Position numbers and translations under genes: made by a program
In this document: positions 45,137 to 57,000 of the stretch, in pieces
Numbering within the stretch: the first letter of the stretch is position 1
Layout: each line of letters opens with the position of its first letter
The notes under the pieces: model-generated
Told to the model about the DNA's origin: nothing
Seen by the model: only the letters and a program-made list of their open reading frames with translations
The model's database searches: none
NCBI GenBank assembly: GCA_036169595.1
Contig: CM069766.1
Span: 2,560,001-2,624,000 of the forward strand
Origin: Dictyostelium firmibasis
Taxonomy: Eukaryota > Evosea > Eumycetozoa > Dictyosteliales > Dictyosteliaceae
DNA length: 64,000 nucleotides
Direction: 5' to 3'

Positions 45137-45210
45137 GCCTTAGTAGCTCAGTTGGTACGAGCGTGAGACTGAAGATCTTAAGGTCGCTGGTTCGATCCCG
45201 GCCTGAGGCA
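45137..45210 (+). tRNA. tRNA-Phe (GAA)
   Basis: A complete cloverleaf. Acceptor GCCTTAG pairs with CTGAGGC, discriminator A. The D arm is GCTC/GAGC. Anticodon stem TGAGA/TCTTA encloses loop CTGAAGA, anticodon GAA at 45171-45173. The T arm is GCTGG TTCGATC CCGGC. No intron. A T run at 45215-45219 is the Pol III terminator. A second B-box-like sequence lies 33 bases downstream, and a tRNA-like repeat copy follows at 45261. Confidence 0.95.
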
Positions 45211-45252: not shown

Positions 45253-45260
45253 TTGGCCCG

Positions 45261-45371
45261 GGGGCTTGGCGTGGTGGTTCCACGCTGAATTACAGGTCTC
45301 CGTGGTCAAGACCTTGGGATCGAGTCTTGGTCATTTTAACCTTGCGTCTAATCATAGGTAAAAAAAAAAAA
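45261..45371 (+). mobile_element. SINE-like tRNA-related repeat, copy A, poly(A) end
   Basis: Starts GGGGCTTGGCGTGGTGGTTC (A-box-like, with a GCG..CGC stem), continues CACGCTGAATTACAG, then CAAGACCTTGGGATCGAGTCTTGG, where CAAGAC/GTCTTG forms a stem around a B-box-like loop. The 3' ACCACG..CGTGGT hairpin of other copies is replaced here by TCATTTTAACCTTGCG. It ends CTAATCATAGGT followed by an A run, the same end as a fragment at 55722. See copies B-G. Confidence 0.6.
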
Positions 45372-54171: not shown

Positions 54172-54380
54172 CGGTCAATAACCAAGAAAATCGTATTTTT
54201 TTTAAAAAAAATAAAATTAATTTTCAATAAAATCCCCACATCCATTCACCCAAATTATTTCTTTTAATTTTAATTTTTAAAAAATTGTTGAATCTAGATT
54301 TTTTTTTTTTATTCTAATTCCACCATTTCTTACTAATAACCTGAGAAAAGAACTTTTGTTTAATGAGTTGTTATTGTTAT

Positions 54381-54415
<35 letters not shown>

Positions 54416-54565
54416 GTTGTAGAGGTTGTTTAGTGTATGTTGTATTGTATTAAGTTCTTGGGTAATTTAATAGAGTGTAGTTTTGAGTTCCATTTTTTGT
54501 TGAACCTTTTTCTTTTTTTTTTAAATTGGATATTGTTTTCAAAACATACTTTTTTTTTTTTTAAA
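53964..54565. other. Intergenic, T-rich, left edge of the repeat island
   Basis: Many T runs (54060-54071, 54137-54172, 54382-54412). GTTGTAGAGGTTGTTTAGTGTATGTTG near 54416 is of mixed composition, with no frame. Nothing assignable. Confidence 0.5.
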
Positions 54566-54737
54566 ATAACCCCATCCAATTGGATGTGTTCGAATCATGT
54601 TTTTATTTATTAATTATTTTATTTTAAAAATTTTTTTCTGTGACCACATTAATTCGTGGTAGGACCGAGACTTGAACCAAGGCCATGGAGGCTGTGTTAT
54701 TCAGCGTGAAACCACTATGCTAAGCCCTCCAGAAAAG
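54566..54737 (-). mobile_element. SINE-like tRNA-related repeat, copy B with tail block
   Basis: Read on the minus strand: GGGCTTAGCATAGTGGTTTC (A-box-like), CACGCTGAATAACACAGCCT, CCATGGCCTTGGTTCAAGTC (B-box-like GGTTCAAGTC), then the 3' hairpin ACCACGAATTAATGTGGT. An A/T-rich spacer and a conserved block (AACATGATTCGAACACATCC, AATTGGATGGGGTTATTTT) follow. With the tail, about 170 bp. The tail block recurs at 56722-56772 next to copies F and G. Probably the fullest copy in the window. Confidence 0.6.
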
Positions 54738-54879
54738 ATTTTTTTTTTTTTTTTTTTTTTTTTAAATTGAATATCACAGTTTTTTAGGCTGTCTCTCCTC
54801 GAGAATAGAACTCGTGTTTATTGTTTTTTTTTTTTTTTTTTTACAGGCTCAATTAATGTATAAAATTAATGTTTTGAGT

Positions 54880-54985
54880 GTGTGGCACAAAGGGGAAATA
54901 ATGTGTCTTTATCTGGCTGGTAACATTTGGTGTTAATTACAAACAGTGATATTTGATACTTGTGTTAACATTCAAACCAGCACCT
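54880..54985 (+). repeat. Diverged copy of the 121-bp repeat
   Basis: GGCACAAAGGGGAAATAATG, then GGTGTTAATTACAAACAGTG and ATATTTGATACTTGTGTTAAC match the right-hand pair of repeats (55204, 55421) with many substitutions. An older member of the same duplicated sequence. Confidence 0.6.
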
Positions 54986-55095
54986 TTTTGAATTGATACT
55001 TTGGGGTTGATATTTTTTTTTGATATTTTTAGTTTGATATTTTAATTTGATTATTTTTTTTTAATTATTTTTCATTTTTTTTTTTTAATTTTTTT

Positions 55096-55128
<33 letters not shown>

Positions 55129-55203
55129 CCGGATTTTTTTTGCAAAATTTCCTTTATTCTAAAAAAAAAAGAGTATCAAAATGAATTTGAAAAAATGAAT
55201 TGT

Positions 55204-55324
55204 TGATAGTTGTTTGTAATCTGTACACAAATGAGAAATAATGTGTCGTGTGGTTGGTGATTTTTGATGTTAATTACAAATAATGATATTTGATACGGGT
55301 GTTAACATTTGAAAGTGGCACAAC
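55204..55324 (+). repeat. Perfect direct repeat, left member (121 bp)
   Basis: From TGATAGTTGTTTGTAATCTG to GAAAGTGGCACAAC, identical base for base to 55421-55541. There is no open reading frame and no tRNA fold. The source is unknown. Confidence 0.9.
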
Positions 55325-55420
55325 GAAAATGAAAAAAAACTGCGTTTTTTTTCATTTGGTCGATATTTTTTAATTATTTATTATTATTTTTTTTTTTTTA
55401 TTTTTTTTAGAAATAAAAAG

Positions 55421-55541
55421 TGATAGTTGTTTGTAATCTGTACACAAATGAGAAATAATGTGTCGTGTGGTTGGTGATTTTTGATGTTAATTACAAATAA
55501 TGATATTTGATACGGGTGTTAACATTTGAAAGTGGCACAAC
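55421..55541 (+). repeat. Perfect direct repeat, right member (121 bp)
   Basis: Identical to 55204-55324, 217 bp downstream. The right edge runs directly into CCCTCCAGAAAAGAT, the sequence that also borders SINE-like copy B (54724-54739), so the breakpoint coincides with a repeat edge. Confidence 0.9.
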
Positions 55542-55591
55542 CCCTCCAGAAAAGATGGGTTTAGCCTATTTTTCGGGAAAAATTTCAAAAT

Positions 55592-55664
55592 GCCCGGCTA
55601 GCTCAGTCGGTAGAGCGCCAGACTCTTAATCTGGTGGTCGGGGGTTCGAGCCCCCCGTTGGGCG
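55592..55664 (+). tRNA. tRNA-Lys (CTT)
   Basis: 73 nt. Acceptor GCCCGGC pairs with GTTGGGC (two G:T), discriminator G. D arm GCTC/GAGC, anticodon stem CCAGA/TCTGG with loop CTCTTAA, anticodon CTT at 55625-55627. T arm GGGGG TTCGAGC CCCCC. No intron. A short TTTT at 55668 may terminate transcription. Downstream exB-like box at 55696. Confidence 0.96.
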
Positions 55665-55680
55665 AAATTTTAAATAATAT

Positions 55681-55739
55681 GAACTTGAGTTCGCGGGTTC
55701 GAATCTGGGTATGGAAGCCAAATCATAGGTAAAAAAAAA
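55681..55739 (+). mobile_element. Downstream B box (55696-55705) fused to SINE-like 3' end
   Basis: GGTTCGAATC, 32 bases after tRNA-Lys, is an exB-like element. The following GGGTATGGAAGCCAAATCATAGGT with an A run is the same 3' end as copy A (AATCATAGGT-An). So either a 5'-truncated repeat copy sits here, or the exB sequence is itself part of a repeat. SINE-like copy C starts at the end of the A run. Confidence 0.5.
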
Positions 55740-55830
55740 GGGGCTTAGCGTAGGGGTTCCACGCTGAGTTACAAGCCTCCGTGGCCAAGACCTTGGGTTT
55801 GAGTCTTGGTCATACCACGAAGTAACGTGG
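55740..55830 (+). mobile_element. SINE-like tRNA-related repeat, copy C
   Basis: GGGGCTTAGCGTAGGGGTTC (A-box-like), CACGCTGAGTTACAAGCCTC, then CCAAGACCTTGGGTTTGAGTCTTGG, a 7-bp stem (CCAAGAC/GTCTTGG) around a B-box-like loop. It ends in a perfect hairpin ACCACG-AAGTAA-CGTGGT. Starts right after the A run of the previous fragment, as retroposed copies often do. Confidence 0.6.
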
Positions 55831-55852
55831 TAATAATTAAACCCTCATTATT

Positions 55853-55940
55853 GGAGGCTATATGTAGAGGTTCTGCTCTGAATCACACAGTCCATGGCCT
55901 TGGTTAGAACCTTAGGTCATACCACGAAGTAAAATGGTCA
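55853..55940 (+). mobile_element. SINE-like tRNA-related repeat, copy D (diverged)
   Basis: GGAGGCTATATGTAGAGGTTC, CTGCTCTGAATCACACAGTC, CATGGCCTTGGTTAGAACCT, then GTCATACCACGAAGTAAAATGGTC. Clearly the same family in the same order, with a decayed A-box and a partly lost 3' hairpin. Directly follows copy C in tandem. Confidence 0.55.
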
Positions 55941-56012
55941 TAAATAATACACCTCATAATCAACCGAAAAAAAGCTAGACTTCCAATAATATTAAAAAAA
56001 AAAAACATGGCG

Positions 56013-56109
56013 ATTAGAAATTCTAATCCCAATAATAGTAAAAAAAAAAAAAAATAAAAAAAAAAAAAAAAAAAGAAATTCTAATCCCAATAATATTAAA
56101 AAAAAAAAC
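56013..56109 (+). repeat. Duplicated short fragments with A-rich ends
   Basis: AGAAATTCTAATCCCAATAAT followed by A runs occurs twice (about 56014 and 56076), and a weaker third version (CTTCCAATAATATTA-An) precedes it at about 55980. They look like serial short copies with poly(A) ends between copies D and E. Confidence 0.55.
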
Positions 56110-56164
56110 GGGGCTTAGCGTAGTGGTTCCACGCTGAATCACAAGCCTCCGTGGCCAAGACCTT
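56110..56164 (+). mobile_element. SINE-like tRNA-related repeat, copy E, truncated
   Basis: GGGGCTTAGCGTAGTGGTTC, CACGCTGAATCACAAGCCTC, CGTGGCCAAGACCTT, then the match stops inside the B-box stem and unrelated sequence begins (ACAACAGGTAGACCC). Its 5' half is very close to copy C. Confidence 0.6.
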
Positions 56165-56640
56165 ACAACAGGTAGACCCTTTGAATACAACAATGTAATA
56201 GCATTAGTTATGCATCACATATGTATATGGTGACAAAATACCAATTTGGATTTTGAACTGTTAACAAACAAATGGCACAAACTAGCATCACTAGAATATA
56301 TTAAACTATTAAAAGACTACAAGCTATCAGCAGCCAAATACCCACAAATCTTTTGCGATAATAATTCATACTACAGTAAAATGAAAAAAATCAAAAACCG
56401 AATAACAATCAAATACTATATCCTTAGAAAATCACTTCCTAATAATGTGATGGTAGACTTTTTCATATAAAAATTAAAATTTCATAGGAGAAAAATAACA
56501 ATAACTTAAAAAAAAACTTATAAAAAAAAAAAAAAAAACCTAATAAATAAACTTTATTATTGTTAAGACTAAGGTCATAAAAATAATCATTAATATTAAA
56601 AAATAAAAAAATAAAAAAAAATATAAATTATTTTAATTTT
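56165..56640 (+). other. Unassigned segment with a 74-codon open frame
   Basis: Sequence of mixed composition joined to truncated copy E. An open frame at 56246-56470 reads MDFELLTNKWHKLASLEYIK, then LLKDYKLSAAKYPQIF and a Lys-rich end. It continues upstream for a few codons without a start. After the stop come an A run and AATAAATAAACTTTATT. It may be the 3' part of an element inserted at copy E, or a small host gene. I do not recognise it. Confidence 0.35.
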
Positions 56641-56651
56641 AAATTTTTTTT

Positions 56652-56712
56652 CTGAGACCCACGTTATTTCGTTGTATGACCAAGACTTCAACCAAGAATG
56701 GAGCCTAATTTT
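56652..56712 (-). mobile_element. SINE-like tRNA-related repeat, copy F, 3' half only
   Basis: Read on the minus strand: TTAGGCTCCATTCTTGGTTG, AAGTCTTGGTCATACAACGA, AATAACGTGGGTCTCAG. That is the B-box part and 3' hairpin without the A-box half. Confidence 0.5.
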
Positions 56713-56721
56713 TTCTTTTTT

Positions 56722-56880
56722 TAATAACCTTATCCAATTGGATGTGTTCGAATCATGTTTATTTATTGATTAATATAATTTTAAATTTTTTTAAGTCACC
56801 ACGTTAATTCCTGGTATGATCAAGACTTAACACAGCCTCTGTGGTCTTGGTTCACTAACTAAGCCCCCTTATTGAGGCTA
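56722..56880 (-). mobile_element. SINE-like tRNA-related repeat, copy G, centre inverted, with tail block
   Basis: The tail block (ATCCAATTGGATGTGTTCGA on the plus strand, 56731-56758) matches the tail beside copy B. The body reads in the minus direction (CACCACGTTAATTCCTGG, ATGATCAAGACTT ... AACTAAGCCCCC on plus). The central 25 bases at 56829-56853 (AACACAGCCTCTGTGGTCTT, then GGTTC) are in the opposite orientation to the flanks. Confidence 0.6.
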
Positions 56881-56914
56881 AATTTACCTGTGTAATCAAA
56901 AAAGATATGGAAAT

Positions 56915-57000
56915 CCGGCTTTGGCGCAATGGTAGCGCGATTGACTGTAGTAATGAAAAGTGATCAATCGGTTGCTAGTTCGAATCTGGCAAGCCGGAAA
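56915..57000 (+). tRNA. tRNA-Tyr (GTA) with a short intron
   Basis: Acceptor TCCGGCT pairs with AGCCGGA, discriminator A. D stem GCGC/GCGC. Anticodon stem ATTGA/TCAAT, anticodon GTA at 56948-56950. An intron of about 12 nt follows one base after the anticodon (TAATGAAAAGTG), the usual place, and is usual for eukaryotic tRNA-Tyr. T arm GCTAG TTCGAAT CTGGC. The T run at 57001-57010 is the terminator. Confidence 0.95.

What the first reader, a model, noticed from the sequence alone, without database searches (positions are those of the whole stretch)
54566..56880. A SINE-like, tRNA-related repeat family clustered around tRNA genes
Seen: at least six copies (B 54566, C 55740, D 55853, E 56110, F 56652, G 56722), plus copy A at 45261, in both orientations. 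They share an order: A-box-like GGCTTAGCGTAGTGG with a GCG..CGC stem, ACGCTGAATNACA, GCCTCCRTGGCCAAGACC, a B-box-like GGTTYGAGTC set in a CCAAGAC/GTCTTGG stem, then the hairpin ACCACG-loop-CGTGGT. None folds as a proper tRNA (no acceptor pairing). Known: SINEs descend from tRNA genes and keep A and B boxes. I do not recall a SINE family in the standard Dictyostelium repeat lists. Inference: a Pol III-driven nonautonomous family that favours tRNA neighbourhoods.
Basis: partly seen in the sequence, partly recalled or inferred. Interest (0 to 1): 0.78.

Follow-up and report, generated by a model that had tools for sequence, protein, structure and literature searches.

The report
Two amoeba SINEs flanking tRNA genes
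The repeats belong to two families of short, non-coding jumping DNA in a social amoeba that share a tRNA-like front half; one family lands just before tRNA genes and the other just after them, apparently by borrowing the machinery of two different larger jumping elements.

Summary
S5 (window copies B, F, G): about 170 bp; one tRNA-like head, A/T linker, hairpin tail, poly(A); 240 tail sites genome-wide, reversed-pattern control 0. S3 (C+D together; A and E in part): about 310 bp; two tandem heads, another tail, poly(A); 105 head sites, control 0. Both have common ends and target-site duplications. In the stretches fetched, 37 of 38 S5 with a tRNA in reach lie upstream on the opposite strand and 42 of 42 S3 downstream on the same strand: the reported rules of the LINEs TRE5 and TRE3. 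Some SINE heads run into TRE 3' ends; the one S5 head on the S3 side carries a TRE3-type 3' end. Best reading: sister SINEs with a shared head and different tails, moved by TRE5 and TRE3. Pol III transcription and mobilisation in trans are inferred. Nine repeat-related searches of the held open-access library showed no description beyond one unnamed RepeatMasker count.

The parts
45137..45210 (+). tRNA-Phe gene, anchor for copy A
   Evidence: ARAGORN
45257..45334 (+). Copy A, first part: S3 module 1 (78 bp, 92% to S3)
45339..45364 (+). Copy A, second part: 3' terminus of TRE3-type group G1146 (26/26), then poly(A); SINE::LINE fusion
   Evidence: sequence
54368..54517 (-). Fragment of the 3' part of a TRE5-type element (group G1163, 86% over 155 bp)
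54565..54731 (-). Copy B: complete S5 SINE (94% to S5 over 167 bp); no clear target-site duplication
54740..55543 (-). Short TRE5-A-type element (about 800 bp, repeated inner module); its far edge lies about 48 bp before tRNA-Lys, between the tRNA and S5 copy B. Edges by eye
   Evidence: label from position and repeated module (PMC5006619 passage)
55591..55665 (+). tRNA-Lys gene
   Evidence: ARAGORN, Rfam
55740..56037 (+). Copies C + D: one S3 SINE (90% over 303 columns); module 1 about 55738-55840, module 2 about 55850-55948, then linker and hairpin tail; A run after it
56045..56097 (+). Second S3 tail fragment before E
56110..56164 (+). Copy E, first part: S3 head (98% over 55 bp)
56165..56602 (+). 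Copy E, second part: 3' end of TRE3-type group G1244 (56333-56602 aligned at 89%; 56165-56332 lies upstream of the LINE stretch held and is assigned by continuity only)
56622..56706 (-). Copy F: S5 fragment, S5 positions 40-123
56723..56869 (-). Copy G: S5 positions 60-166 (56723-56828) with S5 34-60 inverted at 56828-56854; its edge lies about 45 bp before tRNA-Leu
   Evidence: edge read
56914..56999 (+). tRNA-Leu gene, anchor for G and F
   Evidence: ARAGORN, Rfam

Best explanation
Two related SINE families. Each copy is proposed to be transcribed by RNA polymerase III from A and B boxes in a tRNA-like head, into a poly(A)-ended RNA that a LINE captures. S5 RNA is used by TRE5-type LINEs, which insert about 50 bp upstream of tRNA genes on the opposite strand; S3 RNA is used by TRE3-type LINEs, which insert some 50-170 bp downstream on the same strand. 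The families share a head and differ in tail, so the 3' end, by choosing the LINE, would set the side of the tRNA gene. Shown here: copy number, ends, poly(A), target-site duplications, box motifs, placement, and SINE heads fused to LINE 3' ends. Inferred: Pol III transcription, mobilisation in trans, template switching as the source of the fusions, and recognition through the tail.
For: Copy number and controls. Unit lengths 158-171 bp (46 of 52 S5 heads have the tail) and 298-325 bp (31 of the 34 tailed S3, of 44 heads); poly(A) medians 12 and 32. Target-site duplications (exact, effective length >=9): S5 26 of 46, mispaired control 4.7%; S3 25 of 34, control 1.5%. Placement: S5 37 of 38 upstream/opposite, S3 42 of 42 downstream/same. 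Test from 54 tRNA genes chosen by score alone: 14 have one of 100 listed S3 heads within 200 bp, all downstream/same (67-169 bp); 11 have one of 100 listed S5 heads within 400 bp, 10 upstream/opposite, 8 of them at 42-55 bp; shifted controls within 400 bp 0.18 and 0.195 of 54. Boxes: S5 A+B at gap 34 in 38 of 46, shuffles 1 of 920; TTTT in 0 of 34 S3, shuffles 283 of 680. Fusions: S3 heads with TRE3-type 3' ends by BLAST at four places; S5 with a TRE3-type 3' end at one, the only one of the 38 off the S5 rule; S5 with TRE5-type matches at two, less clean. None of the 150 RVT_1 matches listed falls in ten longer S3 loci (compared by eye).
Against: No transcript data. S3 module 1 usually departs by one base from the B box; a strict A+B pair at 20-90 bp is in 1 of 34 S3 copies. 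S5 has TTTT in 17 of 46 copies, in 16 near position 97, a possible early Pol III stop. Tails share no significant sequence with the LINE 3' ends examined, so the basis of the pairing is open. tRNA ancestry is weak: S5's best tRNA match is a 16-nt A-box stretch, S3 modules score close to shuffles. The head fold has 1 of 26 pairs with a change on both sides. 20 of 46 S5 and 9 of 34 S3 lack a TSD by the rule used. 14 of 52 S5 and 2 of 44 S3 heads have no tRNA within 1.6 kb in what is held; for 8 and 1 of these at least 1.6 kb on the 5' side was held. One of 11 tRNA-centred S5 cases is upstream on the same strand. That the 3' end and not the head sets the side rests on one fusion.
Confidence: 0.85

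Rival explanations
1. The repeats are the 5' UTR or internally deleted copies of TRE3 and TRE5 themselves, not independent SINEs. This was my own first reading (note).
For: Placement follows the reported TRE rules; fusions with TRE 3' ends occur; a short TRE5-A-type element sits in the window.
Against: In 9 of 10 longer S3 loci the head is followed within 272-297 bp by the S3 tail (the tenth, L075, has an S3 head without S3 tail), and none of the 150 listed RVT_1 matches lies in these loci. Heads and tails do not match 9.5 kb of TRE ends from five groups plus the window's TRE5-A-type element below E 0.05. 34 of 44 S3 and 46 of 52 S5 heads end in their own tail. The 5' ends of groups G1195 and G1146 were not clearly seen.
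Confidence: 0.08
2. Tandem or segmental duplication of tRNA neighbourhoods, not retrotransposition, spread the repeats.
For: 17 of 25 same-strand S5 pairs within 500 bp, among 100 listed heads, are spaced 189-204 bp; seven S3 pairs lie 358-476 bp apart.
Against: Different tRNA species at the sites, separate target-site duplications and variable poly(A). Tandem units carry poly(A) and often a repeat of the same TSD, as expected for repeated insertion at one site.
Confidence: 0.03
3. The heads also act as mobile Pol III docking sites: an inserted S3 or S5 attracts further insertions, so clusters grow by self-targeting as well as by the tRNA gene. This would add to the best explanation, not replace it.
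For: S3 sits inside S3, same strand, 92, 96 and 133 bp after the outer head at three places. S5 pairs head-to-head at 53-55 bp at two places. TRE5-A is reported to use A/B box sites without tRNA context (PMC5391098, passages).
Against: Few cases. Both S5 pairs also hit the palindrome in the S5 tail, so sequence preference is not separated from promoter targeting.
Confidence: 0.3

Closest known systems
tRNA-derived SINEs with LINE partners (general kind; features recalled)
   Same: Short, no room for an RT, A and B boxes, poly(A), TSDs, dispersed, LINE-like insertion
   Different: Placement fixed relative to tRNA genes; two families with one head and two tails on opposite sides; tRNA parentage not firmly shown
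TRE5 non-LTR retrotransposons of Dictyostelium
   Same: S5 shares position about 50 bp upstream and opposite strand (rule from PMC5911963 passages)
   Different: S5 is 170 bp and its head and tail do not match the TRE5-type ends examined
TRE3 non-LTR retrotransposons of Dictyostelium
   Same: S3 shares position downstream, same strand (40-150 bp, PMC5911963 passages) and, by eye, a similar last 10 or so bases before poly(A) with groups G1244/G1229
   Different: No RT beside S3; head not found at the TRE3-type 5' ends seen
H3R elements (solo LTRs of DGLT-A)
   Same: Repeats upstream of tRNA genes
   Different: LTRs, with DGLT-A reported about 15 or 13-33 bp upstream (PMC5006619, PMC5911963 passages); S5 lies mostly at 42-72 bp and has poly(A). 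Sequences not compared
EhSINEs of Entamoeba (recalled, not looked up)
   Same: SINEs of an amoebozoan paired with LINEs
   Different: No tRNA-gene placement recalled; sequences not compared

Membership tests
SINE | Short, dispersed unit with common ends and no RT | tested here: met
   S5 158-171 bp in 46 of 52; S3 298-325 bp in 31 of 34 tailed (44 heads); 240 and 105 sites
SINE | 3' poly(A) or A-rich tail | tested here: met
   Median 12 (S5) and 32 (S3)
SINE | Target-site duplications | tested here: met
   26 of 46 and 25 of 34 against 4.7% and 1.5% in mispaired controls
SINE | Internal Pol III promoter motifs (A and B box) | tested here: met
   S5 A+B in 38 of 46. S3 A in 32 of 34 and B in 30 of 34, but the strict pair at 20-90 bp in 1 of 34, so met in full only for S5
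SINE | Transcribed by RNA polymerase III | not testable with these tools
   No transcript data here
SINE | Mobilised in trans by a LINE | tested here: inconclusive
   Indirect: placement rules and fusions; no assay
SINE (tRNA-derived subtype) | Head descends from a tRNA gene | tested here: inconclusive
   S5 head scores 32 with tRNA-Trp, shuffles 17.9 +/- 1.7, but over 16 nt only; S3 modules 25 and 20 against 18.9 +/- 2.8 and 18.6 +/- 1.9; no Rfam tRNA match
TRE3 / TRE5 | Two ORFs with APE, RT and zinc finger | tested here: not met
   None of 150 listed RVT_1 matches lies in ten longer S3 loci; S5 is 170 bp
TRE3 / TRE5 internal-deletion derivative | Shares 5' and 3' ends with its parent LINE | tested here: not met
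   No match below E 0.05 to TRE ends of five groups plus the window's TRE5-A-type element; not all 5' ends seen
H3R (DGLT-A solo LTR) | Position about 13-33 bp upstream of tRNA; LTR without poly(A) | tested here: not met
   S5 nearest copies 48-70 bp in 16 of 27, farther in 11; 42-72 bp in 9 of 11; poly(A) present; sequence comparison not done

The most novel reading that the evidence does not exclude
One tRNA-like head has been paired with two different tails, giving sister SINEs that exploit two LINE clades reading the same Pol III complex from opposite sides. The 3' end alone decides whether the parasite lands before or after a tRNA gene, and natural head/tail fusions in this genome act as ready-made swap experiments.
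Probability: 0.65. Interest if true: 0.75.

Novelty: new variant of a known kind. Interest (0 to 1): 0.66.

Why it matters
The passages I read on Dictyostelium elements at tRNA genes name LINEs and LTR elements but no SINE, and the D. firmibasis annotation looked for transposable elements by tblastx with D. discoideum Repbase entries, which could easily miss short non-coding repeats. Two families with at least 240 and 105 sites would add a missing layer to a well-studied case of LINE targeting to Pol III genes. Because S3 and S5 share a head but land on opposite sides, they allow a direct test of which part of a LINE RNP chooses the side of the tRNA gene, and of how a LINE picks its SINE RNA.

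Tried and rejected
My first reading, that A, C, D and E are the 5' UTR of TRE3-A, was written into notes and dropped when 9 of 10 longer S3 loci showed a private tail 272-297 bp after the head. The H3R idea was dropped on position and poly(A). Rfam gave only true tRNA genes. A search for a tRNA parent gave only a short A-box match. A shared-tail search between SINEs and LINEs found nothing below E 0.05; both kinds fold a small hairpin before poly(A), and S3 and the TRE3-type groups G1244/G1229 end alike for about 10 nt, the latter by eye. The head fold gave 1 pair of 26 changed on both sides. Head-to-head S5 pairs first looked like clean self-targeting; reading them showed insertion in an S5 tail palindrome, so they stay ambiguous. 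The blastn table was swamped by A/T runs and not used, apart from the S3-S5 head comparison at its end. Deletion after insertion was not excluded as a source of the head::LINE fusions, since no TSD spanning a fusion was sought.

Limits: S5 and S3 statistics rest on 60 merged stretches (281,888 bp), mostly picked by similarity to window copies. Distances run from the first G of GGCTTAG, a few bases inside the unit. Genome-wide lists were cut by the tool: 100 of 240 S5 tails, 100 of 136 S5 heads and 100 of 105 S3 heads were listed; the last two lists were used. Only 63 tRNA matches were scored of 2401 candidates; the 9 on contig C12 were dropped as probably mitochondrial, leaving 54. Two S3 rows are nested copies that share one tail. 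C5:1720156 continues after 211 bp of S3 into sequence I did not identify. No other dictyostelid genome was searched. Ten paper searches were made: nine on repeats, one on the species. Only open-licence papers are held; Glockner 2001 (PMC311061) is not. PMC4683709 (one passage) lists 88 'SINEs' in D. discoideum and 57 in D. purpureum from a default RepeatMasker run without naming them, so earlier detection of something related cannot be excluded.
Full report
What is there. The window lies at C2:2560001-2624000 of a 31,455,843-base, 12-contig genome. Contig number, size, largest contig (9.41 Mb) and a 4.39 Mb contig match the published Dictyostelium firmibasis TNS-C-14 assembly (31.5 Mbp, 12 contigs, 9.4 Mbp largest, N50 4.39; PMC11193728, passages).

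Two families. A search with copy A gave 43 matches from 40 scored of 120 candidates; a search with copy B gave 75 matches from 40 scored of 188 candidates. Reading the loci separates them. S5 (B, F, G) is one tRNA-like head of about 95 bp, an A/T linker, and a tail ending GATTCGAACACATCCAATTGGATGAGGTTATT before poly(A). S3 (C+D) is two tandem heads, a linker, and a tail ending GATTAGAAATTCTAATCCCAATAATATT before poly(A). S3 module 1 matches the S5 head at 84% over 97 columns and module 2 at 86% over 78. Pattern counts with up to 3 mismatches are 240 for the S5 tail and 105 for the S3 head, each 0 for the reversed control; the S5 head 21-mer with up to 1 mismatch gives 136, control 0.

SINE anatomy. 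In 60 merged stretches (281,888 bp, 57 ARAGORN tRNAs) there are 52 S5 and 44 S3 heads. S5 units measure 158-171 bp; 31 of the 34 S3 measure 298-325 bp, the rest being one deletion (184) and two nested copies (401, 417). Exact target-site duplications of effective length 9 or more are found in 26 of 46 S5 and 25 of 34 S3, against 4.7% and 1.5% when 5' and 3' flanks are mispaired. Median identity to the majority sequence is 97.5% for S5 (n=46) and 99.3% for S3 (n=31), with poly(A) medians of 12 and 32, so S3 looks younger. In 9 of 10 longer S3 loci the S3 tail follows the head at 272-297 bp; the tenth (L075) has an S3 head without S3 tail. None of the 150 RVT_1 matches listed lies in those ten loci (by eye).

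Promoter motifs. Using the A box TRRYNNARYNG and B box GTTCRANNC given for Dictyostelium (PMC5391098, passages), S5 has an A box in 43 of 46, a B box in 40 of 46, and both at a gap of 34 in 38 of 46 (shuffles 1 of 920). S3 has an A box in 32 of 34 and a B box in 30 of 34, but the consensus B box is in module 2; module 1 mostly has a one-base variant, so the strict pair at 20-90 bp is found in 1 of 34. TTTT occurs in 0 of 34 S3 (shuffles 283 of 680) and in 17 of 46 S5, in 16 of these near position 97 (shuffles 663 of 920). These fit Pol III genes, with the S5 T-runs as a reservation. No transcript was examined.

Placement. Of 38 S5 heads with a tRNA within 1.6 kb, 37 are upstream and on the opposite strand; the copies nearest to 27 tRNA genes lie at 48-70 bp in 16 cases (48-55 in 12) and at 114-1294 bp in 11. 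Of 42 S3 heads with a tRNA in reach, 42 are downstream on the same strand; nearest copies to 33 tRNA genes run from 53 to 1114 bp, 24 of them at 53-163. 14 S5 and 2 S3 heads had no tRNA within 1.6 kb; for 8 and 1 of these at least 1.6 kb was held on the 5' side, so for them the link is missing or lies farther off. The reverse test starts from 54 tRNA genes chosen by score alone (63 scored, 9 on C12 dropped): 14 have an S3 head within 200 bp, all downstream/same at 67-169 bp; 11 have an S5 head within 400 bp, 10 upstream/opposite (42, 48, 49, 51, 54, 54, 54, 55, 72, 217 bp) and 1 upstream/same at 389 bp. Controls with shifted tRNA positions (400 bp) give 0.18 and 0.195 of 54. TRE5 is reported to insert 44-54 bp upstream in opposite orientation and TRE3 40-150 bp downstream in the same orientation (PMC5911963, passages).

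Link to the LINEs. I fetched short stretches around ends of RT-bearing elements. By eye group G1229 starts about 120 bp after a tRNA-Leu on the same strand, as TRE3 would; the window's TRE5-A-type element has its far edge about 48 bp before tRNA-Lys on the opposite strand and resembles group G1163 at its 3' end (79% over 98 bp). G1244 and G1146 are called TRE3-type because of similarity to G1229 (G1244) and because their fusions lie downstream on the same strand. Several SINE heads run into LINE 3' ends: S3 with G1146 (window copy A, 26/26), with G1244 (window copy E, 89% over 199 bp; C5:1739671, 93% over 146 bp) and with G1229 (C3:3865565, 87% over 278 bp); S5 with G1146 (C1:480648, 99% over 94 bp). 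Two S5 heads are followed by G1163 matches (C3:299162, 27/27, in a complex locus with an inverted S5 tail; C5:215932, 75% over 60 bp after an unmatched stretch); these are less clean. By eye, C1:7326318 runs from S3 into LINE-like coding sequence 1.5 kb before an RT match and C5:2004751 ends in the G1229 terminus. The S5::G1146 fusion is the only one of the 38 tRNA-linked S5 heads that lies downstream on the same strand, beside two S3 copies: in this one case placement went with the 3' end and not the head. Such fusions are expected if a LINE reverse transcriptase switches template to a SINE RNA (known for mammalian L1, recalled); later deletion is not excluded.

What it is not. Heads and tails do not match the TRE ends examined (9,513 bp; lowest E 0.078), so these do not look like TRE deletion derivatives, though not every TRE 5' end was seen. 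They are not H3R solo LTRs by position and poly(A). tRNA origin of the head is plausible but unproven, and its predicted three-hairpin fold is not supported by covariation.

How it likely works. Inferred: Pol III makes an RNA from the head promoter; the RNA ends in poly(A); a TRE5 or TRE3 complex takes it up, guided by something in the tail, and inserts it at that LINE's preferred site beside a Pol III gene. Repeated insertions at the same site push older ones outward, which would explain stacks such as tRNA-Lys in this window: outward on the 5' side a TRE5-A-type element, S5 copy B and a TRE5 fragment; on the 3' side S3 (C+D) and the fusion E. Three S3-in-S3 insertions 92-133 bp after the head suggest that S3 itself can serve as a target.

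Literature. Ten searches of the open-licence library were made, nine on repeats and one on the species. Passages of seven papers were read (PMC5006619, PMC5911963, PMC5391098, PMC2888827, PMC4683709, PMC11193728, PMC12324515); other papers were seen in search listings only. None of this names a SINE family of dictyostelids; PMC4683709 gives a count of 88 SINEs for D. discoideum and 57 for D. purpureum by default RepeatMasker, unnamed. Repbase and subscription papers could not be checked, so prior description elsewhere is possible; my guess is about one in five.

Noticed in passing
window 54740-55543: Short TRE5-A-type element with repeated inner module, about 48 bp before tRNA-Lys and abutting S5 copy B; six other places in the genome match across the same S5 / TRE5-A junction.
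   Followed up: partly
L067 and L046, just 5' of the S5 copy: By eye, ultra-short TRE5-like insertions of about a dozen bases plus poly(A), seemingly flanked by duplicated target sequence: extreme 5' truncation.
   Followed up: no
window 56828-56854: S5 copy G carries an inverted inner piece (S5 34-60), as 5' inversion during LINE-type insertion could leave.
   Followed up: no
L086 (C4:3154870-3155075) and L088 (C1:7785997-7786050): S5 copies inserted into the palindrome CATCCAATTGGATG of other S5 tails, in opposite orientation, 53-55 bp from the next S5 head.
   Followed up: partly
L033/L034 (C1:1848470/1848566), L020 (C4:2070014/2070106), L089 (C5:524508/524641): S3 inserted inside S3 on the same strand, 92-133 bp after the outer head.
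   Followed up: partly
L080 about 187-680: Long CAGCAA/CAACAA-type simple repeat after the 3' end of a TRE3-type element (group G1195).
   Followed up: no
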